Shown piece by piece: positions 40,134 to 58,898 of a stretch of DNA of 64,000 bases. The stretch is from Aquitalea aquatilis. GTDB lineage: Bacteria > Pseudomonadota > Gammaproteobacteria > Burkholderiales > Chromobacteriaceae. Numbering within the stretch: position 1 is the stretch's first letter; each line of letters starts with the position of its first letter. The position numbers and the translations under genes were made by a program. The stretch is taken from positions 1 through 64,000 of the forward strand of contig NZ_CP039731.1 in NCBI RefSeq assembly GCF_005155025.1, given 5' to 3'. The notes under the pieces are model-generated. The model ran no database searches. It was not told where the DNA came from and worked only from the letters and a program-made list of their open reading frames with translations.

Positions 40134-40790
40134 ATGATGAATATTGCCGACCTGGCCCAGACCCGCTACACCACCAAGGCCTTCGACCCCAGCCGCCAGC
40201 TGAGCGCACAACAGGTCGAACAGATCGAAACCCTGCTGCGCTTCAGCCCCTCGTCCACCAACTCGCAGCCCTGGCACTTTTTCATTGCCGGTAGCCCGGA
40301 AGGCAAAGCCCGCGTGGCCAAGGCTACCAGCGGCACCTACGCCTTCAATGAAGCCAAGGTACTGAACGCCTCGCACGTGGTGGTACTGTGCAGCCGCGCC
40401 AGCATCGATGATGCCTATCTGGAAACACTGCTGCAGCAGGAAGAAGCCGACGGCCGTTTTGCCAATGCCGAAGCCCGCGCCGGCCAGCATCGTGGCCGTT
40501 CACACTTCGTCAACATGCACCGCTTCGAATTGCGCGATGCCCACCACTGGATAGAAAAACAGGTTTATCTGGCGGCAGGCACCCTGCTGCTGGGCGCAGC
40601 CGCCCTGCAAATCGACGCCTGCCCGATTGAAGGCTTCGACCAGAAAGTGCTGGATGAAGAACTGGGCCTGCGTGCCATGGGCTATACCAGCGCCGTCATC
40701 GTGGCCCTGGGCTATCGCAGCGGCAGCGACTTCAATGCGCAGCTGCCCAAGTCACGCCTGCCGGCCGACCGCGTGATCAGCCGCATCTGA
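40134..40790 (+). CDS. nfsB: Oxygen-insensitive NAD(P)H nitroreductase
   Basis: A 218-residue FMN enzyme with AAGGAG before tandem ATGs. Conserved segments are RYTTKAFDPSR, the FMN-binding LLRFSPSSTNSQPWHFF, and EELGLRAMGYTSAVIVALGYR near the C-terminus. It reduces nitroaromatics and quinones by two-electron steps. The last 39 bases overlap the 3' end of the convergent methyltransferase gene, which is a large overlap for unrelated genes. Confidence 0.92.
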   Translation: MMNIADLAQTRYTTKAFDPSRQLSAQQVEQIETLLRFSPSSTNSQPWHFFIAGSPEGKARVAKATSGTYAFNEAKVLNASHVVVLCSRASIDDAYLETLLQQEEADGRFANAEARAGQHRGRSHFVNMHRFELRDAHHWIEKQVYLAAGTLLLGAAALQIDACPIEGFDQKVLDEELGLRAMGYTSAVIVALGYRSGSDFNAQLPKSRLPADRVISRI

Positions 40791-41678
40791 GCGGCCACCC
40801 GCTGGCAGCGCACAAGGCAGGGACAAGCCACCCAGCCGGAACCAGCGGGCCAGATTATTGAAGTCGCGCTGTTCCAGCGGGCTCAGGTCGCGATAGGCGG
40901 CCGCCGCCCGCTGAGCCAGCGCGGCATCGACACTGCGACGGGGGGGCGAGCGCAACAGCACCAGGAACGGGGCGACGGCGGTCTGATGGCAGTACAGTGC
41001 CTCGCCTAGCAAGGCAGCGCCCTGGCGCAACTCGTCCAGACTGAAGGCTGCACGCATCGAATTGAGAAAATCCTCGGTGAACTGCGCCGATTGCTGTGCT
41101 GCCCGGTCGTAAGCAAAGAAACGCTGGGTAGCCGCACGCTTGAGACGGCCAAAATCGGCCAGGTAAACCCCGCCATCCGGACGCAGGATGCGCCGCAGCT
41201 GCTGCATGGTCTGCGCCAATTGTCCGGTATCCGCCAGATGGTGCAGCGACATGGTGCACAGCACGCAATCCGCTGCGGCCCGGCCCACGCCATCCAGCTG
41301 GCTGATGTCCGCTTGTTGCAAGCGGATATTATGCATGCCGGCCGCCGCGATATTCGCCTCGGCCTGCTGCAGCATCGGCAGCGAGGCATCGATGCCGACA
41401 AAGCTGGCGTCGGGATGCAGCGCCGCCATTTTCAGCAACTGATTGGCCGGCCCGCAGGCCAGATCAAACACCACATCACCCGGCCGGATCAGCGGCAGCG
41501 CCATCACCGCATGAAACAGATAAAGATAGTTCAGCATGCCGTCGGCCCGGCCGCTGTTCATGAAGGAAGCCACCTGGCCGGATTCCACCATCAGCGCCTG
41601 CGGTTCCGGCTGGCGCGGCAGCACTGCGGGCGTGAAGCGCTCCAGCAGCAGATGGGTAAGCATCAAGGGAAGGGACAT
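40752..41678 (-). CDS. SAM-dependent methyltransferase at the edge of the aryl polyene cluster
   Basis: A 308-residue protein with class I methyltransferase motifs: VVFDLACGPANQLL (motif I, near 68-81), FVGIDASLPML, and LCTMSLHHLAD followed by LRRILRPDGGVYLADFG. It is the third gene of the leftward acyltransferase - glycosyltransferase unit. Related methyltransferases occur in many aryl polyene clusters and may modify the aryl head group or the chain. Link to the pathway is by position and precedent. Confidence 0.75.
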   Translation of the reverse strand: MSLPLMLTHLLLERFTPAVLPRQPEPQALMVESGQVASFMNSGRADGMLNYLYLFHAVMALPLIRPGDVVFDLACGPANQLLKMAALHPDASFVGIDASLPMLQQAEANIAAAGMHNIRLQQADISQLDGVGRAAADCVLCTMSLHHLADTGQLAQTMQQLRRILRPDGGVYLADFGRLKRAATQRFFAYDRAAQQSAQFTEDFLNSMRAAFSLDELRQGAALLGEALYCHQTAVAPFLVLLRSPPRRSVDAALAQRAAAAYRDLSPLEQRDFNNLARWFRLGGLSLPCALPAGGRSDAADHAVGRQA

Positions 41679-41797
41679 GGCTCAGGATGATTGATCTGTC
41701 GGGAAACCCAGCCGCCGCTTGCCTGGCAAGACGAAGCCATGCACGACAGCCGGGCCAATGGCCGCAGCCCTGCCGGCCGAAGGACAGCCGCGCAGCA

Positions 41798-42562
41798 TCA
41801 AGATGGCCGACGCAGGCGTTGTAACAGCAACACCGGCAAGCGCAGGGCAAAACCGAACATCAGCCGGATATGCATCCAGGTCAGCAAGCGGTTGTCACGC
41901 CAGTAATTGAAATGCGACACGCCGCCCTCCCCTGCCTGGAAATATTTCACCGGCGCCGGCAGATTCACCGGCGCGACGCCAGCCCAGCACAGCCGCACCA
42001 CGGCTTCGGGATCGAAATCAAAACGCCGCATCCAGTGCTGGCGCTGCATGATGCGGCGCAAGGGAGCCACCGGATAGACCCGGAAGCCAAACAGCGAGTC
42101 GCCAATGCCCATCCACAGTGTTTCCAGATTGGCCCACCAGTTGGATATCTTGCGCCCCTTTACCCGCAGGCTGGGTGCGCTGGCGTCGAATACCGGCACG
42201 CCCAGCACCATGGCCCCGGGCTGCTGCTGCGACGCTGCCATGAAGGCGGGAATCTGCTCCACCGGGTGCTGGCCATCCGAGTCCATGCACAGCACATGGG
42301 TAAAACCCAGCCGAGTGGCCTCTTCCAGGCCGTGCAGCACCGCCGCCCCCTTGCCGCTGTTCTGCGGCAGAACAAAGACCCGCAAGCCGTCATCCTGCGC
42401 GGCCATCGCCCGCAGCCCCTGCTCCGAGCCATCATCACTGCCATCGACGATCACCCACACCGGCGACCATTGCCGGCGCGCAGCGCGCACGGTGTCGAAC
42501 ACCTTGGGGCCGGGGTTATAACTGGGGATCAGCACCACATGGGTGGTCGAAGGTATGGGCAT
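41798..42562 (-). CDS. Family 2 glycosyltransferase (aryl polyene cluster)
   Basis: A 254-residue GT-A enzyme: VVLIPSYNPGPKV at the start, DGSDDGS, and LCMDSDGQH, which contains the metal-binding Asp-x-Asp-like motif, then a hydrophobic C-terminal helix. This family transfers sugars to lipids or polyprenols. In aryl polyene clusters a glycosyltransferase is often fused with, or beside, an acyltransferase and is believed to make the lipid anchor. Here the two are separate adjacent genes. Confidence 0.8.
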   Translation of the reverse strand: MPIPSTTHVVLIPSYNPGPKVFDTVRAARRQWSPVWVIVDGSDDGSEQGLRAMAAQDDGLRVFVLPQNSGKGAAVLHGLEEATRLGFTHVLCMDSDGQHPVEQIPAFMAASQQQPGAMVLGVPVFDASAPSLRVKGRKISNWWANLETLWMGIGDSLFGFRVYPVAPLRRIMQRQHWMRRFDFDPEAVVRLCWAGVAPVNLPAPVKYFQAGEGGVSHFNYWRDNRLLTWMHIRLMFGFALRLPVLLLQRLRRPS

Positions 42563-42668
42563 GGCGGGCTATTCGGGCTGCTCATCGCCCGGATGACAGC
42601 GATGATGTTTGAATTGGGCAGGACCATAGCCGATTGCCACCGGCCAGGTCAAGAATGCGCGGAGGGTG

Positions 42669-43427
42669 CTACAAACGCAGCGAGGCATCAATGGAGCCAT
42701 TTTGCAAACAGGATTCGAAATACTGCTGCAGCCGCCGCGCCGTTTCATCACGGCGGCCATATGCCTCGAATTGCTGGCCGGGCACAGCGCGGTAAATCAG
42801 TGGAAAAGCGGGCGGCTTCCATATTTTCCAGCCCTTGCTCAAATAGGCTGAATTGGTAGTAAGCAGGATGGTCTGCAAAGGGGCGGCCGCTTTTTTGGCA
42901 ATCAGGGCAACGGCACCGCCAATATCATTAACGGGCTGGCGTGTGGTGCGTGTTCCTTCCGGGAAAATCATCAACACACCGCCTTGCTGAATGGTTTGAA
43001 TTGCCTGGCGAAACATCTGTTCTGGATAACGATTCGAAACATATCCGGCCAGATAAGCCCCACACCCCAGAAACAGATTGGAACTGATACTGGCTTTCAT
43101 CAGGCAAACCGCATGCGGCACGCGCGACAGCACCAGAAAGGCATCGATCATGCTCGGATGATTGGGCACCAGCAGCATGCGCCCGCGGTGATTAAGCTGG
43201 TCCAGCGCGTGCAAATCCAGCTGCATCAGGCGACAGGCCTGCGCACCAGCCAGAAAGCAGCGGCAAATGCGGCTGATGACCCATTGCACCAGCGGCTGGC
43301 GCCAGCGCCCGGGTAACAGCAACAATGGCAGGGCAGCGATATTACCCAATAGCAGCATGGAGCCCAACCACGACAACATGAGATAAAAAAGTATTACCTG
43401 ACCCAGGCGTAAACAGCGGGACGACAT
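42669..43427 (-). CDS. 1-acylglycerol-3-phosphate-type acyltransferase (aryl polyene cluster)
   Basis: A 252-residue protein with two N-terminal membrane segments (about 8-28 and 30-45), the acyltransferase motif NHPSMID (HxxxxD) near residue 90, and FPEGTRT near 160. It is the first gene of the leftward unit that shares a divergent control region with the ACP-ketosynthase-dehydratase genes. It probably acylates the glycan or glycerol anchor on which the polyene is mounted. Confidence 0.82.
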   Translation of the reverse strand: MSSRCLRLGQVILFYLMLSWLGSMLLLGNIAALPLLLLPGRWRQPLVQWVISRICRCFLAGAQACRLMQLDLHALDQLNHRGRMLLVPNHPSMIDAFLVLSRVPHAVCLMKASISSNLFLGCGAYLAGYVSNRYPEQMFRQAIQTIQQGGVLMIFPEGTRTTRQPVNDIGGAVALIAKKAAAPLQTILLTTNSAYLSKGWKIWKPPAFPLIYRAVPGQQFEAYGRRDETARRLQQYFESCLQNGSIDASLRL

Positions 43428-43664
43428 GATTAAACTTTACTTTCAATTTGCAGTAACACACCGCCCGGATTGGTCATGGTGATAATACGGATTCATACTC
43501 TTGCCAGGATAATAAAGGCGATGGTATTAACATCGCCACAGCCGCCATACAGCAGGGATTGACCGCGAATAAGAGCGCAGTAAAACCGCCGGATCAGCCG
43601 ACCCGGATGCCATGATTTTACTATATAATCAGCCCCCTTTGGTGCACGCAACGCTCTGGACTGG
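43428..43664. promoter_or_regulatory. Divergent control region of the aryl polyene cluster
   Basis: This 237-base AT-richer segment separates the two divergent transcription units. A good -10 element TATAAT at 43624-43629 faces the ACP gene, without a recognisable -35. No regulator gene is inside the cluster. Confidence 0.45.
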
Positions 43665-43949
43665 ATGCTTATGCTAGAAGAAATCATCAAGAACTATCTG
43701 ATCAATACCAAGGCCAAGGATCCGGCTTTGTTCAGTGACCCCGCCTTGCAAGTATCTGCACTGGGGCTGGATTCGCTGGACATGGTGGAGATGTTGTTCG
43801 AAATCGAAGATCGCTGCGGTTTCCAGCTGCCCGACCCCAGCCGTTATCCGAAAATGGCTTTCCGCGAAATGCTGGACGATATCGAAAAAGCCATTCGCGA
43901 GCACAATAATGGCGAACTGCCTGAGTTCAGTCTTGAGGCGGGCAAGTAA
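43665..43949 (+). CDS. Acyl carrier protein (aryl polyene cluster)
   Basis: A 94-residue ACP with the phosphopantetheine site GLDSLDMVEM (S37). A second ATG at 43671 is equally plausible as start. The TATAAT box lies ~35 bases upstream. Its stop is followed at once by the TTG start of a ketosynthase gene, so the two are co-translated. It carries the aryl starter or the growing polyene thioester. A second, different ACP is encoded at 56603-56893. Confidence 0.88.
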   Translation: MLMLEEIIKNYLINTKAKDPALFSDPALQVSALGLDSLDMVEMLFEIEDRCGFQLPDPSRYPKMAFREMLDDIEKAIREHNNGELPEFSLEAGK

Positions 43950-45203
43950 TTGAGCAAGGTCCTGATTACCGGCATGGGTGCCATCAGCCCACTGGGTGCC
44001 GACCTGCCCGGCAGCTTTGCCCGTGCGCTGGCTGGCGATTGCGCCATCGGCCCGGCGTCGGCCGACATCGCCAAGTGGCTGCCCAACGTGCTGCTGGCCC
44101 GCGCCGCCGCCGAGCCGCACACCTTGCTGGAGGCCAAACATGCCGCGCTGGACCGGGCCAGCCAGTTTGCCCTGGTGGCAGCGGGCGAGGCGATGAACAC
44201 AGCAGGCATCACGCCACGGCCGAGCGATGCGCGCCGCTTCGGCGTGTTTGTCGGCATCGGCTTTGGTGGAGCCCATACGGTAGATGGCCTGTACGAGCGC
44301 TTTCAGTCGGCAGTCCAGAGCGAGGGCAAGCGCAATCCGACCGTGGTCCATCCGCTGTCGGTGCCACGCATGATGGCCAATGCCGCCGCCGCCGCCATTT
44401 CGATGACTTACGGCCTGAACGGCCCCAGCAATACCTATTCCGTTGCCTGTGCGTCCTCCGCCATCGCCATTGGCGAGGCTTTCCACGCCATCCGGGATGG
44501 CTATCTGGATGCCGCCATCGTGGTGGGATGCGAAGCCATGCTGACGCCTGGCTCACTGCTGGCCTGGAATGCCTTGCGCGTGATGGCCAAGCCGCATGCG
44601 ACCAACCCGGCGCGTAGCTGCCGCCCCTTCTCACAGGACCGCAGTGGTTTCGTGCTGGGCGAAGGTGGCGCGGCCATCGTGCTGGAAAGTGCCGAACGCG
44701 CCCAAGCCCGGCAACAGCCGGCGCTGGCCGAGTTGTGCGGTTATGGCCGCAGCAGTGACGCCGCCCACCTGACTGCCCCCTCCAGTGCGGAACAGGTCTT
44801 TGCCATGCAACAGGCGCTGGCAGATGCGGGCTTGCAACCACAGCACATCCAGTACCTGAATGCCCACGGCACCGCCACCGAGGCTGGTGATGTGGTGGAA
44901 ACAGAATCCATCCGCAGCGTGTTTGGTGATGCGCTGCAGCAGCTGGCCATCAGCTCGACCAAGTCCATGCATGGTCACCTGATCGGTGCCAGCGGCATTC
45001 TGGAATTCGCCCTGGCGGTGATGGCGATGAACAGCGGTTCGCTGCCGCCCACCGCCACGCTGGAAACGCCTGATCCACGCTGCGACCTTGACTTCATCCC
45101 GCTGACCGCACGGCATGGCTGCCAGGTGGAGGCCATCATGTCCAATTCCTTTGCCTTCGGCGGCAGCAATGCCTCGCTGGTGGCACGACGTCTCCCGGCA
45201 TGA
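43950..45203 (+). CDS. Beta-ketoacyl-ACP synthase (KAS II-like, aryl polyene cluster)
   Basis: A 417-residue ketosynthase starting with TTG directly after the ACP stop. The catalytic triad is intact: C167 in VACASS, His in NAHGTATEAGD, and His in KSMHGHLIGASG. It should elongate the chain with malonyl-ACP. Start and stop both touch neighbouring genes (zero spacing and four-base overlap). It is likely equivalent to one of the two active ketosynthases (ApeO or ApeR) known from aryl polyene work; which of them I cannot say. Confidence 0.9.
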   Translation: MSKVLITGMGAISPLGADLPGSFARALAGDCAIGPASADIAKWLPNVLLARAAAEPHTLLEAKHAALDRASQFALVAAGEAMNTAGITPRPSDARRFGVFVGIGFGGAHTVDGLYERFQSAVQSEGKRNPTVVHPLSVPRMMANAAAAAISMTYGLNGPSNTYSVACASSAIAIGEAFHAIRDGYLDAAIVVGCEAMLTPGSLLAWNALRVMAKPHATNPARSCRPFSQDRSGFVLGEGGAAIVLESAERAQARQQPALAELCGYGRSSDAAHLTAPSSAEQVFAMQQALADAGLQPQHIQYLNAHGTATEAGDVVETESIRSVFGDALQQLAISSTKSMHGHLIGASGILEFALAVMAMNSGSLPPTATLETPDPRCDLDFIPLTARHGCQVEAIMSNSFAFGGSNASLVARRLPA

Positions 45204-45694
45204 CGCAGGATTACCACTACCCGATGTTGCTGCAACGCGACGATATCCAGCAGATATTGCCGCATCGCGGGGCCATTTTCGTGTGTGAGCAGCTGTGCAT
45301 CGAAGGGCCGCACCAGTTTCATGGCACGGCCTGCTGGCCACGCGACAATGCAGTGATCCAGGGACATTTCCCCGGCCTGCCCATCGTGCCGGGTGTGATG
45401 CTGATCGAGTCGATGGCGCAATTTGCCGGAGCCGGCCTGCTGGCCGGCGACCCATACGTCAAGACGCTGCCGCAGGATTCAATCGGCGTACTGGCTGCCG
45501 TGCGCAATTGCTGGTTCAAGCAAGCAGTGCTGCCGGATTGCGCAGTGGAGTTTTTCATCCAGTGCCGCCAGGTGGCCCCCTTGCTGGTGCAGGTGAATGC
45601 CCAGGTCAAGGTGGCGGATAGCGAAGTAGCCAAGCTGGAGATCGCGCTGGCTTATACGCCGCGCACGCAATTGCAACTCAACGGCCAGCCATAG
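45200..45694 (+). CDS. FabZ-like 3-hydroxyacyl-ACP dehydratase (aryl polyene cluster)
   Basis: A 164-residue hotdog protein: LPHRGAIFVCEQ, then GHFPGLPIVPGVMLIESMAQFAG with the catalytic His and Glu pair of FabZ. It removes water to give the trans double bond of each cycle. The ATG overlaps the ketosynthase stop (ATGA). Convergent with the ketoreductase gene across a GC-rich hairpin. The cluster also has two other hotdog proteins. Confidence 0.88.
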   Translation: MTQDYHYPMLLQRDDIQQILPHRGAIFVCEQLCIEGPHQFHGTACWPRDNAVIQGHFPGLPIVPGVMLIESMAQFAGAGLLAGDPYVKTLPQDSIGVLAAVRNCWFKQAVLPDCAVEFFIQCRQVAPLLVQVNAQVKVADSEVAKLEIALAYTPRTQLQLNGQP

Positions 45695-45725: not shown

Positions 45726-45730
45726 GCTGG

Positions 45731-46450
45731 CTACAGCATGCCGCCATTGATGGAAATGACCTGGCCGCTGATATAGGCGGCCTGTTCCGATGCCAGAAAC
45801 GCCACCAGGCTGGCCACTTCTTCCGGTTTTCCTACCCGTTTCATCGGCACCATCCGTGCCACCATGTCCTTGTCGAACACATCTTGGCTCATCGCCGACT
45901 CGATAATCCCCGGCGCCACCGCATTGACGGTAATGCCACGGCTGGCCAGCTCCAGTGCCAGCGACTTGGTCGCGCCGTGCAGCGCACTCTTGGCTGCCGC
46001 ATAGTTGGTCTGACCGCGATTGCCGGCCAGCGCCGCCACCGAGGTGATATTGATGATGCGCCCCCAGCGGGTGCGGATCATCGGCATGGTCAGGGGCTGG
46101 GTGACATTGAAGAAACCATGCAGCGAAACATCGATCACCCTGTGCCATTGTGCCGCCTGCATGCCAGGGAACACGGCGTCGTCGTGTATGCCGGCATTGT
46201 TCACCAGCACTTGCACCGGGCCTTGCTCGAGCAGCCCTTCCAGCGCAGCCAGACTGGCAGCGGCATCGGCCACATCAAACTGCACCGCCTCGGCACTGTA
46301 GCCCTCGGCCAGCAGCGACTGGCACAGGTTTTGTGCGGCAGCCAGATTGCTGTTGGCGTGGATGATGACATGGAAGCCATCGCTGGCCAGACGCTGGCAG
46401 ATGGCGGCACCGATGGCACCGCTACCGCCGGTAATAAGGGCTCGTTTCAT
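45731..46450 (-). CDS. 3-oxoacyl-ACP reductase (aryl polyene cluster)
   Basis: A 239-residue short-chain dehydrogenase: TGGSGAIGAAICQRLA nucleotide loop at the start, NNAGIHDD, catalytic Ser in ITSVAAL, and Y-x-x-x-K in NYAAAKSAL. FabG/ApeQ type. It reduces the ketone with NADPH in each elongation cycle. It is the last gene of a leftward operon that runs from the ACP at 56893. Confidence 0.9.
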   Translation of the reverse strand: MKRALITGGSGAIGAAICQRLASDGFHVIIHANSNLAAAQNLCQSLLAEGYSAEAVQFDVADAAASLAALEGLLEQGPVQVLVNNAGIHDDAVFPGMQAAQWHRVIDVSLHGFFNVTQPLTMPMIRTRWGRIINITSVAALAGNRGQTNYAAAKSALHGATKSLALELASRGITVNAVAPGIIESAMSQDVFDKDMVARMVPMKRVGKPEEVASLVAFLASEQAAYISGQVISINGGML

Positions 46451-50430: not shown

Positions 50431-52753
50431 GGGGACCTATCCTGGCCATCATGGCAGCAAACACCAGCGCCAGCAGCGCGCCAATCGCCACCGTACTGCC
50501 AATGAAGGACAGCACCGGCACGCTGGAACTGCCCAGCAAGCCGAAGCTGGTGACAGTGGCCAGATTGGCCACCACCAGCGATATCTCGACCTGCCGCTGC
50601 TCGGCATCGCTGCCCAGTTGCTGCTTGTTAGCAAAGAACAGCGCGTAGTTGGAGCCGATGGCCACCACCAGCAGCAGGCCTACCAGATGCAATATGGTCA
50701 GCTGGATGCCGCAGGCGTCCAGAATGGCCACCGTGCACAGCACGGCGCAGCCCAGCGGAATAGTGACGCGCACCGCCTGCCGCCAGCCGCAGCTCACCCA
50801 CAGCAACAGCAGGATGGCCAGGCTGCCCAGCGAGGAGAACAACAGCGCCTCGTGCGTGTAGCTATCAAAAATGGCGGTGGTTTCTTCCAAGAGGTCAATT
50901 ACCGTCACCTGGCCCAGCTGCTGTGCCGCCAGCGCCGCCCTGACCTTGTCCAGGGCAATGGTTTCCCCGCTGGCGGGCTTCAGCGGCAGCAACACCAGAT
51001 AGCTGTCAGCCCGGCGGATCAGCATGGAGTCCAGCAACACGCTGGCCGCACTGCCCTGCAGGCTTTGCCGCTGCAGCAGCGGCTGGGTGCGGGCACGCTC
51101 AAGATCAGCCAGGAAACCCGATAACTGATCCGCCTCCAGCGGCATGCCCTGCAAGGCCAGGCGCAAACGTCGCTCGGCCTCGGCCGGCGTGGGCAGGCTG
51201 GCCTGACGTGCGCGCTGCGTGGCGATGCTGGGCAGCAGTTCGTCCGGGCTATGGAAGCCGCCGATGATGTTTTGCTGGCTCAGCTGCTGCAGTACTACGC
51301 GGCTACGCTCGGCCAGCTGCAGCGCAGTTTGCTGATCCGGTGCGCTGAAACTGGCGACATAGCGCATGTCGTTGCCGCCCAGGTCGCCACGCAGTTCGGC
51401 ATCCAGCTTGTTCTGTGCGGCCGAGGTAGAGCTAAGGGCATTGAGCTGGCGGTTCCAGATATCCTGCTGATGCAAGACCAGCACCGCCACCGCCGCCAGC
51501 AAGGCCACGGCCATCAGCCAGCGCAGCCGGGTCAGACCATCCAGAATCTTTTGCAACAGCAGGCCCGGACGGTGCAAGTCGCGCAGATTCAGTTGCTGCG
51601 GCATCAGTCCGGGCAGGATGTAACGGGTGACCAGCGCCGCCGTCAGCAGGCCGCTGATGGAGTACAGGCCCAGCTGCGACAGGCCGGGAAAGCTGGAGCA
51701 CATCAAGGCGGCAAAACCGGTGGCCGAGGTCAGCACGCCCAGCCGCATGGTGCGCCAGAAATGGGAAGGGTTCTTGCCGCCGGCGCGCTGGATGAACAGG
51801 TAGATCGAGTAGTCCACCGCCTCGCCGATCAGCGTGGTGCCAAAGCCCAGCGTCAGGCCATGCACATGACCAAAGCCCAGGCTGACGCTGGCAATGCCCA
51901 CCAGCGCCCCGGATACCACCGGAATCAGCCCCAGCAGCAGCAGCGGCAACGAGCGATACACCAGCAGCAACAACGCCACCACCAGCAGGCTGCCCATGAT
52001 GGCCAGCCGCTCCACCTCGCTCTGGATGATGTTGCGCGAGGCCACCGAAATGACACTGGTGCCACTCATCACCAACCGGCTGTCAGCATGGCGGCCGGGC
52101 AGGCTGGCAAAGGCCTGTTTCACGTCCTCCAGCGCGGCCGCCTGGGCATCGGTATTCAAGCCCGATTCGCTCAGTTGCAGCAGCAGCACCGCCCGCTTGC
52201 CATCGCGCGACACCCAGATGTCGTCGCTGCTGGCAGGCTGGCTTTCACCAATGAACTGGTCGAGGATTTGCAGGGTTTCGCCCGTGGGGTCGCGGGGCAG
52301 GATTTTCTTGACGATCAGCCCGGCATCGCCAGACATGGCATCCAGCGTGCCCTGAATGGTCTCGTGCAAACCGGGCGCGCTGAAGCGCTGCGGCATCACT
52401 GCCGGGCTGAGCAGGTAGCGGTTGTCAAAGAAATAGCGTTGATCGCGCTGCTGGGTCTGGCGGTCGCCGTTCTGTACCGAGGTAAAGCGCGGATTGTGCG
52501 CCAGCTTGCCTACCAGCAAGCGGGATAGCCGGCCGCGCTCGGCCTCGTCCGCACCCTCGATGCCCACCAGCACGATGCGGGCGATGGCACCGTCGCGCAG
52601 TTGGTCGATCAGCATCTGCTGGCGTGCGCTGGGCAGCTTGGGCATGAAGGCGGACAGGTCGGCGACAAAGCGGGTCTGGCTGATTACCAGCACCGAGCCC
52701 AGCATCACCGCCAGCCACAAGCACAGCGCCAGTTTATGGAGGCGAATCTTCAT
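50414..52753 (-). CDS. MMPL/RND-family exporter (aryl polyene cluster, ApeM-like)
   Basis: A 779-residue membrane protein starting MKIRLHKLALCLWLAV, after which a ~200-residue periplasmic loop follows the first helix. Further membrane helices cluster near 250-420 and 620-770, in the two-fold RND layout. The block GFGTTLIGEAVDYSIYLF in the first half has the polar residues seen in MMPL proton channels. It should move the polyene lipid from the inner membrane to the periplasm. Its start overlaps the stop of the LolA-like gene (TAATG). Confidence 0.88.
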   Translation of the reverse strand: MKIRLHKLALCLWLAVMLGSVLVISQTRFVADLSAFMPKLPSARQQMLIDQLRDGAIARIVLVGIEGADEAERGRLSRLLVGKLAHNPRFTSVQNGDRQTQQRDQRYFFDNRYLLSPAVMPQRFSAPGLHETIQGTLDAMSGDAGLIVKKILPRDPTGETLQILDQFIGESQPASSDDIWVSRDGKRAVLLLQLSESGLNTDAQAAALEDVKQAFASLPGRHADSRLVMSGTSVISVASRNIIQSEVERLAIMGSLLVVALLLLVYRSLPLLLLGLIPVVSGALVGIASVSLGFGHVHGLTLGFGTTLIGEAVDYSIYLFIQRAGGKNPSHFWRTMRLGVLTSATGFAALMCSSFPGLSQLGLYSISGLLTAALVTRYILPGLMPQQLNLRDLHRPGLLLQKILDGLTRLRWLMAVALLAAVAVLVLHQQDIWNRQLNALSSTSAAQNKLDAELRGDLGGNDMRYVASFSAPDQQTALQLAERSRVVLQQLSQQNIIGGFHSPDELLPSIATQRARQASLPTPAEAERRLRLALQGMPLEADQLSGFLADLERARTQPLLQRQSLQGSAASVLLDSMLIRRADSYLVLLPLKPASGETIALDKVRAALAAQQLGQVTVIDLLEETTAIFDSYTHEALLFSSLGSLAILLLLWVSCGWRQAVRVTIPLGCAVLCTVAILDACGIQLTILHLVGLLLVVAIGSNYALFFANKQQLGSDAEQRQVEISLVVANLATVTSFGLLGSSSVPVLSFIGSTVAIGALLALVFAAMMARIGPRALPR

Positions 52754-53340
52754 TATTTGCCGCTGGTGCTGGTAATGGTCATTTCCGAGCGGTCGCCATC
52801 GGCCTGCAGGAATTCGATGGTCCGCACCTGGGCATGGCCACCGGCGATGCGGATCTGGCTGATCACCTTCTGCATGCGCGGCTGCAGCGGCGTCAGATTG
52901 AGCTGCCACTGCTCACTGCCACCGGACAGGGCTGCACTGTAATAGCGCTCCAGCGCACTGCGGTCGCCAGACAGGGTGGCGCGCACGCTTTCGACAAAGG
53001 CCGACACTTCGGGACGATCCGCCAGGTTAACGCTCATCTTGCGGCCATCGCTGCGCTCCAGCGTCAGCTTGTTGCCTTCCAGCACCACCCCTTCCGGCTT
53101 GGGCTTGAGCGTGCGCTTTTCCAGCCGGTCGGGCGCGGTAAAGGCCAGTTCGCCGGAGGACTCCAGCGGCTGCTTCAGCATGGCGATGTATTTCTTTTCG
53201 ACAAAGGTGGCCGTGCCGGCTTTTTTCTGGCCCAGTTGCTGCATCAGATCTGCCAGCGACCAATCCGCCGCCTGGCTGCAACCGGCAGCCAACAGCAACA
53301 GCAGTCCGCCCAGGGTCTTGCTCATGATGGTTACACGCAT
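52753..53340 (-). CDS. LolA-like periplasmic carrier protein (aryl polyene cluster, ApeL-like)
   Basis: A 195-residue protein with an N-terminal signal of lipoprotein type (LLLLLAAGCSQA, with Cys at the lipobox). The remainder has the alternating-strand pattern of LolA/LolB proteins (GELAFTAPDRLEKRTLKPKPE). The start may be ATG 53340 or 53325. Such carriers in aryl polyene clusters are thought to help carry the lipid-linked pigment to the outer membrane together with the MMPL exporter next to it. Confidence 0.82.
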   Translation of the reverse strand: MRVTIMSKTLGGLLLLLAAGCSQAADWSLADLMQQLGQKKAGTATFVEKKYIAMLKQPLESSGELAFTAPDRLEKRTLKPKPEGVVLEGNKLTLERSDGRKMSVNLADRPEVSAFVESVRATLSGDRSALERYYSAALSGGSEQWQLNLTPLQPRMQKVISQIRIAGGHAQVRTIEFLQADGDRSEMTITSTSGK

Positions 53341-53347
53341 GGTCTGT

Positions 53348-54271
53348 CTAGCTTTCATCCCAAAAATCGTAAAAATTGAACCAGTTGAACGGGTAGGCGC
53401 GGCAATGCCGCTCCAGCGCCGCAACATACTTGTCCAGCAATGCCTCGCCCGCGGCAGCACGCTGCTGCCGCGTGACGGTGGAGAAATCCTCCAGCAACTC
53501 GAAATGCACGCGGTAGCGGTTGCCACCCAGATAGATGCCGGCCATGAAATACACCGGATGGCGCAACATCGCTGCCATGCGGAAAGGTCCGCTGGGAAAA
53601 CGGGCCGGCGCACCCAGCAGCTGGCGGCTGAGATAGTGGTCCGGGCCTGCTGCGCGGTCGGCCAGGATGCCCACCAGCGCGCCTTCCTCCAGCCGCTGAT
53701 GCACCTTGAGCATGGCGTCCATGGTGCCCAGCGCAATGATGTCGGGGGCGGCTGCCGGGTTGATGGCCTGCAGCGCCTGGTTGATCTGCCGGGCGTTTTC
53801 CGGATACATCGCCATGCTCATCTGCAGTTCAGGCCGGCTGCGCGCCATGGCACGCAAGACTTCAAAGCTGCCCAGATGCGCGCCGAACAACAGCACACCC
53901 TGACCGCCATCACAGTGCTGATGCAGCGCATCCACGCCGGACAGGTCGATCTGGAAGTCGTCAAAACGGTCACGCAGCAGATAAATCCGGTCGTGTATGG
54001 TGCTGGCGAAACTCAGCACATGTTGGTACATCTCGCGCCAGCGCGGTGGCCGCGCCAGGCTGCGGCTCAGGTAGCTGCGCGAGGCCTGGCGCGCCTTGCT
54101 GGCAAACAGCAGAAAATAAAGCGCAATGCCATACAGCACCAGCCGCGAACAGCGCCGCCCCAGCAAACAGGACAAGCTGGACATGATGCGCAGCCAGAAG
54201 CGGTTGCCACGCTCCTGCTGCCGCATCCACTGCGGCCTGTCCGGCGATGGCGTGGCGGCAGGCTCACTCAC
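53348..54271 (-). CDS. LpxL/HtrB-type acyltransferase (aryl polyene cluster)
   Basis: A 307-residue acyltransferase of the lysophospholipid / lipid A late-acyltransferase group. The HX4E motif is present as HLGSFE near residue 132, and a hydrophobic N-terminal helix (~43-60) anchors it. Its start overlaps the hotdog gene stop by four bases. It probably transfers the polyene acyl chain from ACP to the lipid anchor. Confidence 0.85.
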   Translation of the reverse strand: MSEPAATPSPDRPQWMRQQERGNRFWLRIMSSLSCLLGRRCSRLVLYGIALYFLLFASKARQASRSYLSRSLARPPRWREMYQHVLSFASTIHDRIYLLRDRFDDFQIDLSGVDALHQHCDGGQGVLLFGAHLGSFEVLRAMARSRPELQMSMAMYPENARQINQALQAINPAAAPDIIALGTMDAMLKVHQRLEEGALVGILADRAAGPDHYLSRQLLGAPARFPSGPFRMAAMLRHPVYFMAGIYLGGNRYRVHFELLEDFSTVTRQQRAAAGEALLDKYVAALERHCRAYPFNWFNFYDFWDES

Positions 54272-54567
54272 GCCGGCGACTCCGGCGTGATGATGAACTT
54301 GCCATCGGCCACTTTGCGTTCACCATGCAAAATGGTGAACACCACCATGGCCGCATCCTGGCGGTATGCGATACGCAGGCCCTCACCCGGCGTCACCGGG
54401 CTGTGGAACTTGGCCAGCGACAGCCCGCCCAGCAGCACACCGCAGGCTTTTTCAATCACCAGTTGAGCCTGATCCAGCAGCACCACGCCGGGCAGGATGG
54501 GACGACCGGGGAAATGCCCGGCATAGGCAGGATGATCAGTTGGAATATCAAGCGTGGCGTATTGCAT
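54268..54567 (-). CDS. ApeI-like small hotdog dehydratase (aryl polyene cluster)
   Basis: A 99-residue protein with GHFPGRPILPGVVLLDQAQLV: the His is the same as in FabA/FabZ, and Asp replaces Glu as in FabA. Small size and single hotdog fold match ApeI-type dehydratases, which need an ApeP-like partner (46459-46914). It starts two bases after the ligase stop and overlaps the next gene by four bases. Confidence 0.8.
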   Translation of the reverse strand: MQYATLDIPTDHPAYAGHFPGRPILPGVVLLDQAQLVIEKACGVLLGGLSLAKFHSPVTPGEGLRIAYRQDAAMVVFTILHGERKVADGKFIITPESPA

Positions 54568-54569
54568 GA

Positions 54570-55916
54570 CTAGCTTCGTCCAGGAAGATGTTGTGCAAGC
54601 AATGCCTGCAGCGTGCGTGCCAGAATCTTGCCATTGCCATCACGCGGCAGTGCATCGACAAACACGATATGGCGCGGCAGGAAGACCGAATCCACATGCA
54701 GGCGCAAACCGGCCAGAATGGTGGAGCGATCCAGCGCAGGGGCCACCACAAAGGCCACCAGCCGTTCGACCTCTTCCCCCTCCAGGCGTTCGGGCAGGCA
54801 GAACACACCATCCACCACCCCGGGCAGGCCGGTGAGTGCGGCATTGAGAAAGGACAGCGAGCTGCGCTTGCCAGCCACATTGATCATATTGGCCTTGCGG
54901 TCCAGCAAGCGGAAGGCGCAGGGGCCATACAGCTCGACCGTATCGTTAAGCATCTGCGGCGTTTCATAGACCTCCCCCACCGCCCACACCTCATCCTCAC
55001 GCTGCTCCAGCGTAATGCCCTGCAAGGTCTGCCAGTCGCTCTCCAGATCGGGCTGGCGAGTGGCGACCTGGCCGGTCTCGGTCGAACCATAGATTTCCAG
55101 CACCGGACAGCCCAGCTGACGACGGGTTTGTGCCGCCAGTTCGGCCGACAGCGGGGCCGTGGCCGACAACACCACGGCGATGTCCGGCAGCGCGATGTCC
55201 GCTTCCAGCAATTTGCGCAGATGAAACGGGGTAATCACCAGCAGCCGTGGTGCCGGCAGCTCGGCCAGCGCGCTGGCGATATCGGCAGGGAAAAACGGAA
55301 TTCGCGTCGACATCTGCCCGCCAGCCAGAATGGGCAGCAAGACACTGGATTCCAGCCCATACATATGCCGGATCGGCACCGTCCCCACCACCGAACAAGC
55401 CGCGCCGGCCACGCCCCACACCCGCTCAGCGCCAGCCAGGATCGCCAATTGCAGGCGGCCGAAGGTTTTGAAGTGCGGCATCGGCGCACCGGTAGAGCCC
55501 GAGGTGTACATGCAGGCCACACGCTGATCAAAAGGAATCTGCGGCATGGCGGCGGCATCCATGGCGGGGTCTGCCGGCACGCTATCCACCCGGAAATAAG
55601 ACAGGGCCTCCAGCGGGTTCTGCGGCTGATCGACCAGCACCAACAGGCCCGGCTGCACCGCAGCGACCGCAGCAATATGCTCCGGCGCTGCAGAGTTGGG
55701 CAGCACAGTCAGCATGCCGCGGGCGATGGCCGCGAACAGCGTCACCGCAAACCAGTAGCGGTCGGTACACATATTCAGTACCCGCTCGCGCTCGGGCAGC
55801 GCTGCGGCCAGTGTCAGCACCTGGCGGTAAAAGGTAGCCCGGTCGATGCTGGCGCCATCGTGGAAGGCAAAAGGCGCGGTGCGATCGATAGCGGGAAGAA
55901 GCGGTATCAGGGTCAT
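54570..55916 (-). CDS. AMP-dependent aryl-ACP ligase (aryl polyene cluster, ApeH-like)
   Basis: A 448-residue ANL-superfamily enzyme: the P-loop motif is CMYTSGSTGAP near 136-146, with LEIYGSTETGQ and the C-terminal lysine in RDGNGKILARTL. It is somewhat short, as ACP-loading aryl ligases of these clusters are. It activates the hydroxybenzoate starter with ATP and loads it onto ACP. The putative source of that starter is the chorismatase encoded at 57894. Confidence 0.87.
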   Translation of the reverse strand: MTLIPLLPAIDRTAPFAFHDGASIDRATFYRQVLTLAAALPERERVLNMCTDRYWFAVTLFAAIARGMLTVLPNSAAPEHIAAVAAVQPGLLVLVDQPQNPLEALSYFRVDSVPADPAMDAAAMPQIPFDQRVACMYTSGSTGAPMPHFKTFGRLQLAILAGAERVWGVAGAACSVVGTVPIRHMYGLESSVLLPILAGGQMSTRIPFFPADIASALAELPAPRLLVITPFHLRKLLEADIALPDIAVVLSATAPLSAELAAQTRRQLGCPVLEIYGSTETGQVATRQPDLESDWQTLQGITLEQREDEVWAVGEVYETPQMLNDTVELYGPCAFRLLDRKANMINVAGKRSSLSFLNAALTGLPGVVDGVFCLPERLEGEEVERLVAFVVAPALDRSTILAGLRLHVDSVFLPRHIVFVDALPRDGNGKILARTLQALLAQHLPGRS

Positions 55917-55949
55917 GGACAGATCAGTATGGACTGCAACAACGTGGTT

Positions 55950-56606
55950 TTATTCAGCGGCATTGCGGCACTGCGTGTATTTTCGGTAGGACTGGATGGT
56001 CTGGGCAATGCTGAAGGGCGGACTATCCGGCAGCACCAGCTGGCGCACCAGATACTCGCCACCAAACATCAGCCCCAGCGACAGCGGCGTCAGCACCGCG
56101 GCAAACAGCGCCCAGTAGGCCAGCGGGGCCAGCGCGAACAAAGACAGCGACAACAGCGCCGACACGGCGAAATAGATGGTCCAGGCCAGGGTCACTTTCC
56201 AGGTGTAATGGAAGTAAGCGGCATCCAGCGGCGCGGCGATGGCGATTTTGGCAATGCGCGAGCACAGGGCCGATTCATGCGAACCCAGCGTGCGCCCGAA
56301 CATGATACCCAGCGCGCTCATGATTCCCGCATGCTGCAGCAGGTAGAACCAGGCAGCATGGGCCAGCAACTGCTGCAGATTGAGCGCAATCGCCAGCAGG
56401 CCACCCAGACACAGCAGCATGGCAGGCAGACGAAAGGAGGAATTCCAGCTGGCGCCCAGCAGGGCGATGGTCAGCGGCGCTGCGCCAATCACCACGGCGT
56501 AGGCCGGCGGATGCGGCGAAGAAGAAGCCAGATAATCCAGTACCACATACACCAGTCCGACGACAGCCAGCAAAGCCAGGCGCACATTGCGCCACAGCCC
56601 GGTCAT
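55950..56606 (-). CDS. COG4648-type membrane protein (aryl polyene cluster, ApeG-like)
   Basis: A 218-residue protein with about six membrane helices; conserved polar stretches such as FGRTLGSHESALCSRIA are known from cluster-encoded membrane proteins without defined role. Its start overlaps the ACP stop by four bases. Function in the pathway is unknown; a role in anchoring the enzymes at the membrane is a guess. Confidence 0.72.
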   Translation of the reverse strand: MTGLWRNVRLALLAVVGLVYVVLDYLASSSPHPPAYAVVIGAAPLTIALLGASWNSSFRLPAMLLCLGGLLAIALNLQQLLAHAAWFYLLQHAGIMSALGIMFGRTLGSHESALCSRIAKIAIAAPLDAAYFHYTWKVTLAWTIYFAVSALLSLSLFALAPLAYWALFAAVLTPLSLGLMFGGEYLVRQLVLPDSPPFSIAQTIQSYRKYTQCRNAAE

Positions 56607-56893
56607 TTGCTGCGATGCTCGCGAATATAGGCAGCCAGTTTGCGCAGCGATGCAAAAATGGTGGAATTATCTTCGTTATCCGCCTTCATCTGTACGCCAT
56701 ATTGCTTGGACATAACCAGCGCTATTTCCAGGATGTCGATTGAATCAATACCTAATTCATCGCCATACAAAGGCGCGTCAGGAACAATGTCAGCCGGTGC
56801 GATGTCAAGATTCAGCGCGGAAACAATCAATCCGGCGATTTCGCTTTCAAGCGCCAGATCCGGCTCGTTATGTGCGGAGGGTTGTTGTTCCAT
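56603..56893 (-). CDS. Acyl carrier protein (second, aryl polyene cluster)
   Basis: A 96-residue ACP with the phosphopantetheine site ELGIDSIDILEI (S51). It is the first gene of a long leftward operon ending with the ketoreductase. I start it at MEQQPS (56893); the open frame reaches 56965. The gene pair ACP - COG4648 protein - ligase is the usual order in these clusters. Confidence 0.88.
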   Translation of the reverse strand: MEQQPSAHNEPDLALESEIAGLIVSALNLDIAPADIVPDAPLYGDELGIDSIDILEIALVMSKQYGVQMKADNEDNSTIFASLRKLAAYIREHRSK

Positions 56894-57133
56894 GATTTGC
56901 AATAATCGTGTCAGGTTTATAGGGAATTGCCGGTAATCGCCAATGTCACACAGTTTCGGTATCATCGCCGCTCAAATTAAGCAGCACACGCGAGATGTTG
57001 ATGGCGCCACAGTTTAACCGGGGCGCAACACACATTACCGGCAGCAAAAATAATGAAGCGCGAGTATAACAATATGCCTGCCTGCTTGCCACACGGCAAA
57101 AGCAGGTAATTCCAGCGATATCAAGGAGGTGTT
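56894..57133. promoter_or_regulatory. Second divergent control region of the cluster
   Basis: A 240-base intergenic segment between the leftward ACP operon and the rightward PAP2-chorismatase genes; both promoters should be here. It is AT-richer than coding DNA. I cannot define boxes with confidence. Confidence 0.4.
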
Positions 57134-57817
57134 TTGAACGAGGCCGCGACAAACAGCCGCAGCAAAGCCGGCATTCTGCATACGGTATTGACCCGTTTCT
57201 GGTTCAAGATGTTCGGCACCATGGGTTTTACCCTGGTATTTTTTGTCGCCTACGTTTATCTGCTACGGCATCCGGCCGCGCCGGTGACCATTGTCCCGGC
57301 AAGCAGACTCGATGCACTCGTCGGTTTCCAGCCCTGGGCCTTGCCGGTCTATCTGTCGCTGTGGTGCTATGTTTCACTGCCACCGGTCTTGATGAACTCG
57401 CGGCGGGAAATCCTTGCCTATGGCTGGCGGGTGGCACTGCCCTGCCTGCTCGGCCTGACGATTTTTTACTGCTGGCCCAATGCCATTGCCCCGCCGGATA
57501 TCGACTGGAAGCACTATCCCGCGGTGGCTTTCCTGAAAAACGTCGACACGGCCGGCAATGCCTTTCCCTCGCTGCATGTCGCCACCGCCGTGTTCTCTGC
57601 CGTGTGGCTGCACTGGCGGCTGCGCCTGTTGCAGTGGCCGCCCGCCTGGCAATGGCTCAATCTTGGCTGGTGCCTGGCCATTGCCTACTCCACCATGGCG
57701 GTCAAACAACATGTCGCGCTCGACGTGCTGGGCGGCACTCTGCTGGGCCTGATCTCGGCCTGGGCCTGCGGGCTGCGCGCGCATGCCAGCCGCCACTGGC
57801 CGGCCGACAAAACATAA
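57134..57817 (+). CDS. PAP2-family phosphatase, membrane protein (cluster end)
   Basis: A 227-residue membrane protein starting with TTG five bases after a perfect AAGGAGGT. Five to six membrane helices are seen. The PAP2 motifs are GNAFPSLHVA (with catalytic His) and KQHVALDVLGG. It may remove phosphate from a polyprenyl or phosphatidyl intermediate of the anchor. Its place between the core operon and the chorismatase gene suggests a pathway role. Confidence 0.8.
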   Translation: MNEAATNSRSKAGILHTVLTRFWFKMFGTMGFTLVFFVAYVYLLRHPAAPVTIVPASRLDALVGFQPWALPVYLSLWCYVSLPPVLMNSRREILAYGWRVALPCLLGLTIFYCWPNAIAPPDIDWKHYPAVAFLKNVDTAGNAFPSLHVATAVFSAVWLHWRLRLLQWPPAWQWLNLGWCLAIAYSTMAVKQHVALDVLGGTLLGLISAWACGLRAHASRHWPADKT

Positions 57818-57893
57818 CACGGCAATGGCACCGCCCGATGCGCGGCCTGCTTGCCCTTCCATCATTCCGCCCTTACCGCGACAAGCTTGCACC

Positions 57894-58898
57894 ATGCGCC
57901 CAGAAACCCGCCTGCAGTTTTACTCTTCCGACTCGTCCTCCCCGTCGCCAGCTGCCGCCCATGTGCTGGGCGTCAGCCTGCTTGGCCAGCGCGGCAGCCA
58001 CACCCAGCCCTGGCCGGCGCTGCAGGTATTGATGCCACTGCTGGCCAACCCGGCCCAACAGCTGCAGGAATACTGGCATAGCAGCCAAGCGGTACGCCAC
58101 GGGCAGTTTCACGATGTCCGCTTTGGCAGCGATGGTCACTTGCTGTATGGGGCGATCAGCCTGGATGAAGCACTATTTGCCGACAATCGCGGCAGTGCCC
58201 TGCAGCATGCGGCGGAACAGGCTTACCGGCAGTTGTTCTCCCTGCTGGAGGCAGAGGACTGTCGCCACCTGTGGCGGGTCTGGAACTATATTCCGCGCAT
58301 CAATGCCGTGGAGCATGGCATGGAACGCTATCGGCAATTCAATATCGGCCGCCACCAGGCTTTTGCCGACTTTGACCGCCCGGTGGACAGCAGCCCGGCC
58401 GCCTGCGCCCTGGGCGTGGCCGACGGCCCCTTGAGCATTGCCTTTCTGGCGGCACGGCAAGCGACGCAACGCATCGAAAACCCGCGCCAGGTCAGCGCCT
58501 TTGCCTACCCGCAGCAGTACGGCCCGCGCAGCCCCACCTTCAGCCGCGCGGCACTGGCGGACAATGGCGACAACATCATCCTGTTCATTTCCGGCACGGC
58601 CAGCATTGTCGGCCACCGCACCGTACACCCTGGGGATGCGGCAGCCCAAACCCGCGAGACCATTGCCAATATCGCAGTGCTGCTTGAGCAGGCCAATCGC
58701 CAGCATCAGGGGCAACCCTATACCCTGGCGACACTGGATTATCGCGTTTACATCCGCCACGCCACCGACTACCCCGCTGTGCAGCAGACACTGCAACAAC
58801 TGATCGGCCCAGCCATGCGCGTGGTGTTCATGCAGGCGGACATCTGCCGCGACGACCTGCTGGTGGAAATAGAAGCCCAGGCTTTCGCCGCCCGCTAG
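57894..58898 (+). CDS. Chorismatase (FkbO/Hyg5/XanB2 type), hydroxybenzoate supply
   Basis: A 334-residue protein that ends the pigment cluster. The two key blocks NPRQVSAFAYP...YGPRSPTFSRA and ILFISGTASIVGHRT are characteristic of chorismatases, which share a RutC-like fold. XanB2 of Xanthomonas makes 3- and 4-hydroxybenzoate from chorismate, and 3-hydroxybenzoate primes xanthomonadin. The sequence alone does not tell which isomer forms here. The ATG at 57894 follows the PAP2 stop by 76 bases. Confidence 0.88.
   Translation: MRPETRLQFYSSDSSSPSPAAAHVLGVSLLGQRGSHTQPWPALQVLMPLLANPAQQLQEYWHSSQAVRHGQFHDVRFGSDGHLLYGAISLDEALFADNRGSALQHAAEQAYRQLFSLLEAEDCRHLWRVWNYIPRINAVEHGMERYRQFNIGRHQAFADFDRPVDSSPAACALGVADGPLSIAFLAARQATQRIENPRQVSAFAYPQQYGPRSPTFSRAALADNGDNIILFISGTASIVGHRTVHPGDAAAQTRETIANIAVLLEQANRQHQGQPYTLATLDYRVYIRHATDYPAVQQTLQQLIGPAMRVVFMQADICRDDLLVEIEAQAFAAR

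What the first reader, a model, noticed from the sequence alone, without database searches (positions are those of the whole stretch)
40752..58898. Complete aryl polyene / xanthomonadin-like pigment cluster in three transcription blocks
Two ACPs, two active ketosynthases with a chain-length-factor-like partner, three hotdog dehydratases, a ketoreductase, an aryl ligase, two acyltransferases, a glycosyltransferase, a LolA-like carrier and an MMPL exporter all lie together with tight overlaps. Combined with the chorismatase, this predicts a hydroxybenzoyl-primed, membrane-bound polyene. No regulator lies in the cluster.
Basis: partly seen in the sequence, partly recalled or inferred. Interest (0 to 1): 0.75.

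Follow-up and report, generated by a model that had tools for sequence, protein, structure and literature searches.

The report
Xanthomonadin-type polyene pigment gene cluster
This freshwater bacterium (Aquitalea) carries a complete 21-gene cluster for a yellow membrane pigment of a known kind (xanthomonadin / aryl polyene), with a small extra enzyme set that its family added and whose job is untested.

Summary
Window 40752-58898 carries 21 genes of a xanthomonadin-type aryl polyene cluster. KS1 and the CLF match solved ApeO:ApeC pairs better than fatty-acid enzymes, the Pfam-invisible dehydratase folds like the ApeI:P complex, and twelve core genes keep the order of an annotated Azospirillum cluster. 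The chorismatase has the Gly, Cys and Glu of 3-hydroxybenzoate formers. The genome has a separate UbiC, and no DarB or Trp-halogenase over cut-off. Predicted product: a non-brominated, 3-hydroxybenzoyl-primed polyene anchored in the outer membrane.

Corrections: four strand runs, not three; a methyltransferase, polysaccharide deacetylase, alpha/beta-hydrolase, COG4648-like protein and PAP2 phosphatase also belong.

The unusual part is an ACP / FabF-like KS / FabZ-like DH operon (43665-45694), present with such clusters in 14 of 61 genomes (DH missing in one) and absent from the distant clusters read. It does not group with ApeR; its role is untested. The cluster is absent from 3 of 9 other genomes of the genus: one shows an empty site, one a chorismatase remnant. 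Known kind, family-level variant.

The parts
40752..41678 (-). MT: SAM methyltransferase (probable O-methylation of the aryl head)
   Evidence: Pfam Methyltransf_25; in the window and all 13 relatives whose cluster carries KS2; no match to ApeB at E<=1
41798..42562 (-). GT2: family 2 glycosyltransferase, counterpart of the N-terminal half of E. coli ApeJ
   Evidence: 40% to ApeJ residues 8-243; 70-71% to Caballeronia and Azospirillum
42669..43427 (-). LPLAT: 1-acylglycerol-phosphate-type acyltransferase, ApeD counterpart
   Evidence: PF01553; ApeD E=3e-20; N89, H90, D95, E157, G158 invariant in 15 rows
43665..43949 (+). ACP1: acyl carrier protein of the extra operon
   Evidence: PP-binding; S37 invariant in 14 rows; ApeE/ApeF only at E about 0.01
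43950..45203 (+). KS2: FabF-like ketosynthase of the extra operon, active-site residues intact
   Evidence: best solved match 1j3n, a synthase II; C167, H306, K338, H343 invariant in 18 rows; clade apart from ApeR and KS1
45200..45694 (+). DH3: FabZ-like dehydratase of the extra operon
   Evidence: PF07977 over its cut-off, TIGR01750 below; H56 and E70 invariant in 13 rows; missing in G024
45731..46450 (-). KR: FabG-like ketoreductase (46% to ApeQ)
   Evidence: Y150 and K154 invariant in 14 rows
46459..46914 (-). DH2: ApeP-like hotdog dehydratase
   Evidence: no Pfam match; AlphaFold pLDDT 87.6, best PDB fold match 6qsr_B, the ApeI:P complex; ApeP by sequence only at E=0.04
46911..47705 (-). 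CLF: half-length chain length factor
   Evidence: PF13723; 6qsp_B E=7e-11; ApeC E=9e-16; Q155 invariant in 17 rows
47702..48895 (-). KS1: ApeO-type ketosynthase
   Evidence: 6qsp_A E=1.7e-81; groups with E. coli ApeO; C162, H291, K320, H325 invariant in 18 rows
48950..49753 (-). PSD: polysaccharide deacetylase
   Evidence: PF01522; D79, D80, H130, H134 invariant in 15 rows; arcN counterpart by annotation and table order
49750..50430 (-). ABH: alpha/beta-hydrolase, candidate release thioesterase or esterase
   Evidence: no Pfam or NCBIfam match; AlphaFold pLDDT 89.7; 563 PDB matches at E<=0.001, the 50 listed mostly esterases and lipases; S89, D171, H196 (numbered without the start codon) invariant in 14 rows
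50414..52753 (-). MMPL exporter (ApeM type)
   Evidence: PF03176; ApeM E=1e-22; 40-98% best match in 18 of 60 relatives
52753..53325 (-). LolA-like periplasmic lipid carrier (ApeL)
   Evidence: PF19574; ApeL E=1e-10
53348..54271 (-). LpxL-like acyltransferase, counterpart of the C-terminal half of ApeJ
   Evidence: PF03279; ApeJ residues 250-549 E=2e-38
54268..54567 (-). DH1: ApeI-like hotdog dehydratase
   Evidence: PF07977 over its cut-off, PF22818 ApeI-like below; ApeI E=4e-5
54570..55916 (-). LIG: AMP-dependent aryl acid ligase (ApeH/ArcT type)
   Evidence: PF00501; ApeH E=4e-17; K430 invariant in 17 rows
55950..56606 (-). COG4648-like membrane protein (ApeG)
   Evidence: no family match; ApeG E=1e-5
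56603..56965 (-). ACP2: main pigment acyl carrier protein (46% to ApeE)
   Evidence: NF006617 over its cut-off; S75 invariant in 15 rows
57134..57817 (+). PAP2-superfamily phosphatase
   Evidence: PF01569; found in 12 of the 13 relatives whose cluster carries KS2, the stretch of the 13th (G020) ending before the place
57894..58898 (+). CHOR: chorismatase, predicted 3-hydroxybenzoate former
   Evidence: TIGR04444 229.6 bits, below its cut-off of 325; 5ag3 E=4e-46; G234, C318, E325 in 16 of 16 aligned

Best explanation
A chromosomal xanthomonadin-type (3-hydroxybenzoyl-primed) aryl polyene lipid cluster of Aquitalea. CHOR turns chorismate into 3-hydroxybenzoate; LIG loads it on ACP2; KS1:CLF elongates with malonyl units; KR and the DH1:DH2 pair reduce and dehydrate in each cycle, and with no dedicated enoyl reductase apparent among the 21 genes the double bonds build up. 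MT probably O-methylates the ring. ABH probably frees or trims the polyene acyl group. GT2, PSD, LPLAT and the LpxL-like enzyme build and acylate a glycolipid-type anchor, and MMPL plus the LolA-like carrier move the product to the outer membrane. ACP1-KS2-DH3 is a second, family-specific FabF-like module that supports early elongation or supplies an acyl chain. Shown here: homology, predicted fold, catalytic residues, conservation and synteny. Inferred: every reaction, the starter, the anchor and the colour.
For: KS1 and CLF match 6qsp and 7f28; PMC8358021 names 7F28 as ApeO-ApeC, 6qsp as ApeO:ApeC is recalled. DH2 fold matches the ApeI:P entry. Counterparts in the E. coli ape cluster at E<1e-3: ApeC, D, E, G, H, I, L, M, O, Q, and ApeJ as a GT2+LpxL fusion. 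Table order of arcN-arcV and arcK-arcH equals that of PSD-ABH-MMPL-LolA-LpxL-DH1-LIG-COG4648-ACP2 and KS1-CLF-DH2-KR by annotation; twelve core genes keep their order in Azospirillum. Nine relatives have all 21 genes. Chorismatase: Gly, Cys and Glu in 16 of 16, residues named for CH-Hyg5, whereas FkbO has Ala at the Gly and Cys positions. UbiC present separately. No DarB over cut-off; no Trp-halogenase over cut-off.
Against: No pigment data. CHOR scores below the TIGR04444 cut-off and has Ala172 where the paper names a Gly (Nat-hyg5 164) as a CH-Hyg5 residue, in 16 of 16 aligned, so Hyg5 type versus XanB2 type (3- plus 4-HBA) versus CH-IV is open; no XanB2 or ArcB sequence was compared. G033 keeps the other 20 genes without CHOR, so another starter must serve there if that cluster works. 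No match to ApeK, ApeN, or ApeB in E. coli at E<=1, so the release, outer-membrane and methylation steps rest on non-homologous candidates. KR and DH3 match FabG and FabZ models best.
Confidence: 0.85

Rival explanations
1. An ordinary aryl polyene cluster primed by 4-hydroxybenzoate (from UbiC or from CHOR), as in E. coli, not a xanthomonadin.
For: UbiC is encoded; G033 has the other 20 genes with UbiC and without CHOR; XanB2-type enzymes also release 4-HBA.
Against: CHOR sits at the cluster edge beside PAP2 in 11 of the 13 relatives whose clusters carry KS2; G020 has one only in another gene set on another contig and G033 has none. Its Gly/Cys/Glu pattern is that of 3-HBA formers.
Confidence: 0.12
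2. A polyene-dialkylresorcinol hybrid (arcuflavin or flexirubin type).
For: Gene set resembles the arc polyene genes; the Azoarcus DAR locus lists an adjacent KS and ACP (darJ, darC), whose relation to KS2-ACP1 was not tested; NCBIfam flexirubin models FlxB and LolA2 hit KR and LolA, both below cut-off.
Against: Three ACP_syn_III places in the genome; none reaches the DarB or StlD/DarB cut-offs. DarA was not searched for directly.
Confidence: 0.03
3. ACP1-KS2-DH3 is a small fatty-acid module that makes the acyl chain of the pigment's lipid anchor, not part of polyene elongation.
For: KS2 is FabF-like and apart from ApeR; the operon is divergent from the LPLAT gene with 237 bp between; in G020 it stays with LIG, MMPL and the LpxL-like acyltransferase while KS1, CLF, KR and DH2 are gone from that locus; E. 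coli apeR mutants still make the primary APE lipid and show late attachment intermediates (passages of PMC8253772).
Against: No KR or enoyl reductase in the operon; [quoted passage not shown] DH3 is missing in G024.
Confidence: 0.35
4. The cluster is silent or decaying in this strain.
For: The genus loses it: G004 keeps a chorismatase remnant, G007 an empty site.
Against: All 21 window genes are open with catalytic residues that are invariant among relatives.
Confidence: 0.1

Closest known systems
Arcuflavin (arc) cluster, Azoarcus sp. BH72
   Same: Same parts and, by table order, two identical runs: PS-deacetylase, hypothetical, exporter, LolA, acyltransferase, dehydratase, ligase, hypothetical, ACP; and KS, CLF-like, dehydratase, reductase; plus GT, acyltransferase, chorismatase, methyltransferase (Table 1 of PMC3949708)
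   Different: arc is split in two loci, has a halogenase-like gene, a Na/H antiporter, a two-component system and a separate DAR locus; its polyene loci list one ACP, two dehydratases, no second full KS and no PAP2. The DAR locus lists a KS next to an ACP (darJ, darC). arc sequences were not compared here
Xanthomonadin-type clusters of Xanthomonas (pig) and Lysobacter
   Same: KS plus half-length CLF-like partner, ACP, KR, two DHs, AT, LolA-like, chorismatase homologue (passages of PMC3691225)
   Different: A regulator ORF and one ACP and one KS are named there; the window adds ACP1-KS2-DH3, PAP2 and MT, and has no Trp-halogenase over cut-off. Sequences were not compared here
E. coli CFT073 aryl polyene cluster (ape)
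   Same: Counterparts of ApeC, D, E, G, H, I, J, L, M, O, Q by sequence; ApeP by predicted fold
   Different: ApeJ corresponds to two genes, GT2 and LpxL; no match to ApeK, ApeN, ApeA or ApeB at E<1e-3; KS2 does not group with ApeR; none of the 18 ape proteins matches CHOR, PSD, ABH or PAP2 at E<1e-3
Azospirillum ramasamyi plasmid cluster (NZ_CP029832)
   Same: Twelve genes in the same order: ACP, COG4648-like, ligase, DH1, LpxL-like, LolA, MMPL, PSD, KS, CLF, DH2, KR; GT2 and LPLAT follow
   Different: GT2 and LPLAT are on the opposite strand, a methyltransferase lies between PSD and KS, and no match to ABH, ACP1, PAP2 or CHOR (and none to KS2 apart from KS1's relative) in the 30 kb read; an annotated alpha/beta hydrolase lies 4 kb outside the cluster without matching ABH

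Membership tests
Aryl polyene type II PKS | ApeO-type KS paired with a half-length CLF | tested here: met
   6qsp and 7f28 chains, tree, ApeC and ApeO matches, CLF Q155 invariant
Aryl polyene type II PKS | ApeI:ApeP dehydratase pair | tested here: met
   DH1 to ApeI E=4e-5; DH2 fold best 6qsr_B
Aryl polyene type II PKS | Aryl acid ligase, ACP, KR, LolA and MMPL exporter in the cluster | tested here: met
Aryl polyene type II PKS | Yellow aryl polyene product | not testable with these tools
   needs extraction and mass spectrometry
Xanthomonadin / arcuflavin branch | Linked chorismatase forming 3-HBA | tested here: inconclusive
   Gene present; Gly234, Cys318, Glu325 as in 5ag3, Ala172 instead of Gly; activity untested
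Xanthomonadin / arcuflavin branch | Polysaccharide deacetylase, GT2 and acyltransferase set | tested here: met
Xanthomonadin (brominated) | Halogenase | tested here: not met
   PF04820 none over cut-off in the genome; other halogenase families not searched
Arcuflavin / flexirubin hybrid | DarB ketosynthase for dialkylresorcinol | tested here: not met
   DarA not searched
ApeR (second APE ketosynthase) | KS2 groups with ApeR | tested here: not met
   best solved match FabF, 306 bits against 190 for 7f27, ApeR; separate clade, but only one ApeR row, on a long branch

The most novel reading that the evidence does not exclude
The family independently recruited a FabF-like ACP-KS-DH module into a xanthomonadin cluster, where it makes a dedicated acyl chain for the pigment's glycolipid anchor (or serves as a non-ApeR booster), and the alpha/beta-hydrolase ABH is the release enzyme reported as unknown for the Lysobacter xanthomonadin-like pathway.
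Probability: 0.3. Interest if true: 0.5.

Novelty: new variant of a known kind. Interest (0 to 1): 0.33.

Why it matters
[quoted passage not shown] This cluster type puts GT2, deacetylase, two acyltransferases, a phosphatase and an alpha/beta-hydrolase next to the core, and natural variants (no CHOR in G033, no DH3 in G024, reduced loci in G011 and G020, empty site in G007) allow steps to be tested by gene removal in an environmental genus.

Tried and rejected
Rejected: KS2 as ApeR; DAR hybrid; chorismatase as the only 4-HBA source for ubiquinone, because UbiC is present, although G003 showed no UbiC hit and G059 and G060 have chorismatase without UbiC; chorismatase replaced by transfer in part of the genus, because CHOR (63-65%) and MT (62-64%) both differ most from the window in G001, G003 and G005 while MMPL and GT2 differ least of the eight genes compared, which reads as fast evolution.

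Led nowhere: promoter scan, 7 sites against a mean of 4.8 in shuffles; Aquitalea with aryl polyene, 0 papers; Aquitalea with pigment, 19 papers of which 12 were listed and none opened; Chromobacterium with aryl polyene, 11 listed, none opened. Novelty of the extra operon was not searched for in print beyond these.

Papers: of PMC3949708 I read the abstract, part 1 of Results and the Discussion; of PMC8253772 the abstract, part 1 of Results and passages; of PMC8358021 the abstract and passages; of PMC3691225, PMC7170507 and PMC9542644 passages only.

Rows dropped or mixed: in the KS tree one sequence (L053) was set aside, and the row labelled KS1_G020a is really that locus's KS2. In one search the KS1 and KS2 families (18 rows each) hold such paralog rows, so their invariant lists are conservative. 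The listing was cut by the tool; counts use its top rows. Genes were scored as present by tblastn at E<=1e-3, some with partial coverage. Not used: one genome search, one paper search, one fold search, four VIA jobs, six protein-family searches.
Full report
Where it is. The nearest named relatives of the chorismatase are Aquitalea aquatica (90%) and A. palustris (89%), then A. sp. LB_tupeE and A. pelogenes at 63-65%. G000 is one contig of 4.36 Mb. Four unnamed same-genus relatives have contigs of exactly the lengths of those four records, so the genus is Aquitalea by inference.

Anatomy. 21 genes lie in four strand runs: MT-GT2-LPLAT (minus), ACP1-KS2-DH3 (plus), ACP2-COG4648-LIG-DH1-LpxL-LolA-MMPL-ABH-PSD-KS1-CLF-DH2-KR (minus, 13 genes, gaps from -17 to 54 bp), PAP2-CHOR (plus). 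nfsB and cbiM flank it; nfsB and MT overlap tail to tail by 39 bp. The names nfsB and cbiM are by eye, helped by a CbiQ and an ABC protein following.

Core enzymes. KS1 matches 6qsp_A at 277 bits and 7f28_B at 258; the next chain has 187. The CLF's only two matches are 6qsp_B and 7f28_A. PMC8358021 names 7F28 as A. baumannii ApeO-ApeC and 7F27 as ApeR; 6qsp as X. doucetiae ApeO:ApeC is recalled. DH2 has no Pfam family; its model (pLDDT 87.6) has 6qsr_B, titled as the ApeI:P heterocomplex, as best of 158 matches at E<=0.001. DH1 is ApeI-like. Presumed catalytic residues of KS1, KS2, KR, ACPs, ligase, acyltransferases, deacetylase and dehydratases are invariant among the relatives aligned; their roles are recalled. 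ApeJ of E. coli matches GT2 with its first half and the LpxL-like enzyme with its second half, so one E. coli gene is two genes here, about 11 kb apart.

Starter. CHOR has the Gly, Cys and Glu (window G234, C318, E325) of 5ag3 in 16 of 16 aligned sequences, and Ala172 at the third named position in 16 of 16 (residues named in passages of PMC7170507). That 5ag3 is Hyg5 is recalled; its Glu334 agrees with the paper's numbering. FkbO differs at the Gly and the Cys. UbiC is found in 50 of 61 genomes including G000; G059 and G060 have a chorismatase without UbiC, while G003 showed no UbiC hit. In the window genome CHOR is therefore free to serve the pigment (inference).

Extra operon. KS2 at 72% identity or more occurs in 14 of 61 genomes, each time with an MMPL gene of a polyene cluster in the same stretch; the next best in those 61 is 49%. 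Among 274 genomes drawn from the class, 4 match at E<=1e-100, the window and three at 46-49%. ACP1 is in 14 of 14, DH3 in 13 of 14. No KS2 orthologue appeared in the other clusters as far as read: G021, G029, G059, the second G020 set, Azospirillum, Caballeronia; G060 was read in part. Three of the four groups of genomes in the KS1 tree recur in the KS2 tree; G016, G024 and G033 are one group for KS1 and a ladder for KS2. So the operon has mostly been inherited with the cluster. Tree caveat: the one ApeR row and the FabF row sit on long branches. Role open: booster as ApeR (PMC8358021) or anchor acyl chain; PMC8253772 reports that apeR mutants still make the primary lipid and also show late intermediates (passages). 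Azoarcus has a KS-ACP pair in its DAR locus that I could not compare.

ABH. No family match; model pLDDT 89.7, alpha/beta-hydrolase fold, listed matches include S-formylglutathione hydrolase, monoacylglycerol lipases, feruloyl esterases and one NRPS thioesterase domain; Ser89, Asp171, His196 invariant in 14 of 14. The Lysobacter paper calls the releasing thioesterase unknown (passage). Azospirillum and Caballeronia show no ABH match in the stretches read, so it is not universal. PSD beside GT2 would fit a deacetylated amino sugar in the anchor; that aryl polyene lipids contain glucosamine is recalled from a preprint that I saw only as a reference entry.

Gain and loss. Six of nine other genomes of the genus have the cluster (G001, G002, G003, G005, G006, G008). 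G007 has nfsB and cbiM adjacent: homology to the window stops at 40805 and resumes at 59024, with 131 bp between in G007. G004 keeps only a chorismatase remnant there. G009 has no MMPL, chorismatase or cbiM hit. Elsewhere in the family G011 lacks KR, DH2, PSD and ABH in this locus and G020 also KS1 and CLF; both have a second MMPL at 47-50%, and G020 has relatives of KS1, CLF, DH2, KR, PSD, GT2 and CHOR on another contig (L033).

Verdict. A sound observation, correctly read, of a known kind. What is new is the architecture of the family-specific variant, not the system.

Noticed in passing
window 27547-30879, 36607-39936, 16136-17398: Three c-di-GMP signalling proteins (GGDEF plus EAL with PAS domains twice, one with GGDEF only) lie in the window; 36607-39936 ends 197 bp before nfsB.
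   Followed up: no
G000:C1:2130966-2132174 (L050 8966-10174): A FabF-like ketosynthase 44% identical to KS2 outside the cluster has counterparts at 44-46% in all nine other genus members, including the three without the pigment cluster; a possible relative of the extra operon's source.
   Followed up: partly
L040 about 10032; L044/L055: Two states of the same site without the cluster: a chorismatase remnant in G004 and a clean nfsB-cbiM junction in G007.
   Followed up: yes
L037 + L057 (G033): A polyene cluster with 20 of the 21 genes and no chorismatase in the genome at E<=0.001, though UbiC is present.
   Followed up: partly
window 57894-58898 and 40752-41678: Chorismatase and methyltransferase diverge about three times as much as exporter and GT2 within the genus (62-65% versus 87-90% identity in G001, G003, G005).
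   Followed up: partly
G000:C1:3063253-3063600: Only one ACPS-family (PF01648) place is found in the genome, in a 132 aa frame, so it may have to activate both pigment ACPs.
   Followed up: no
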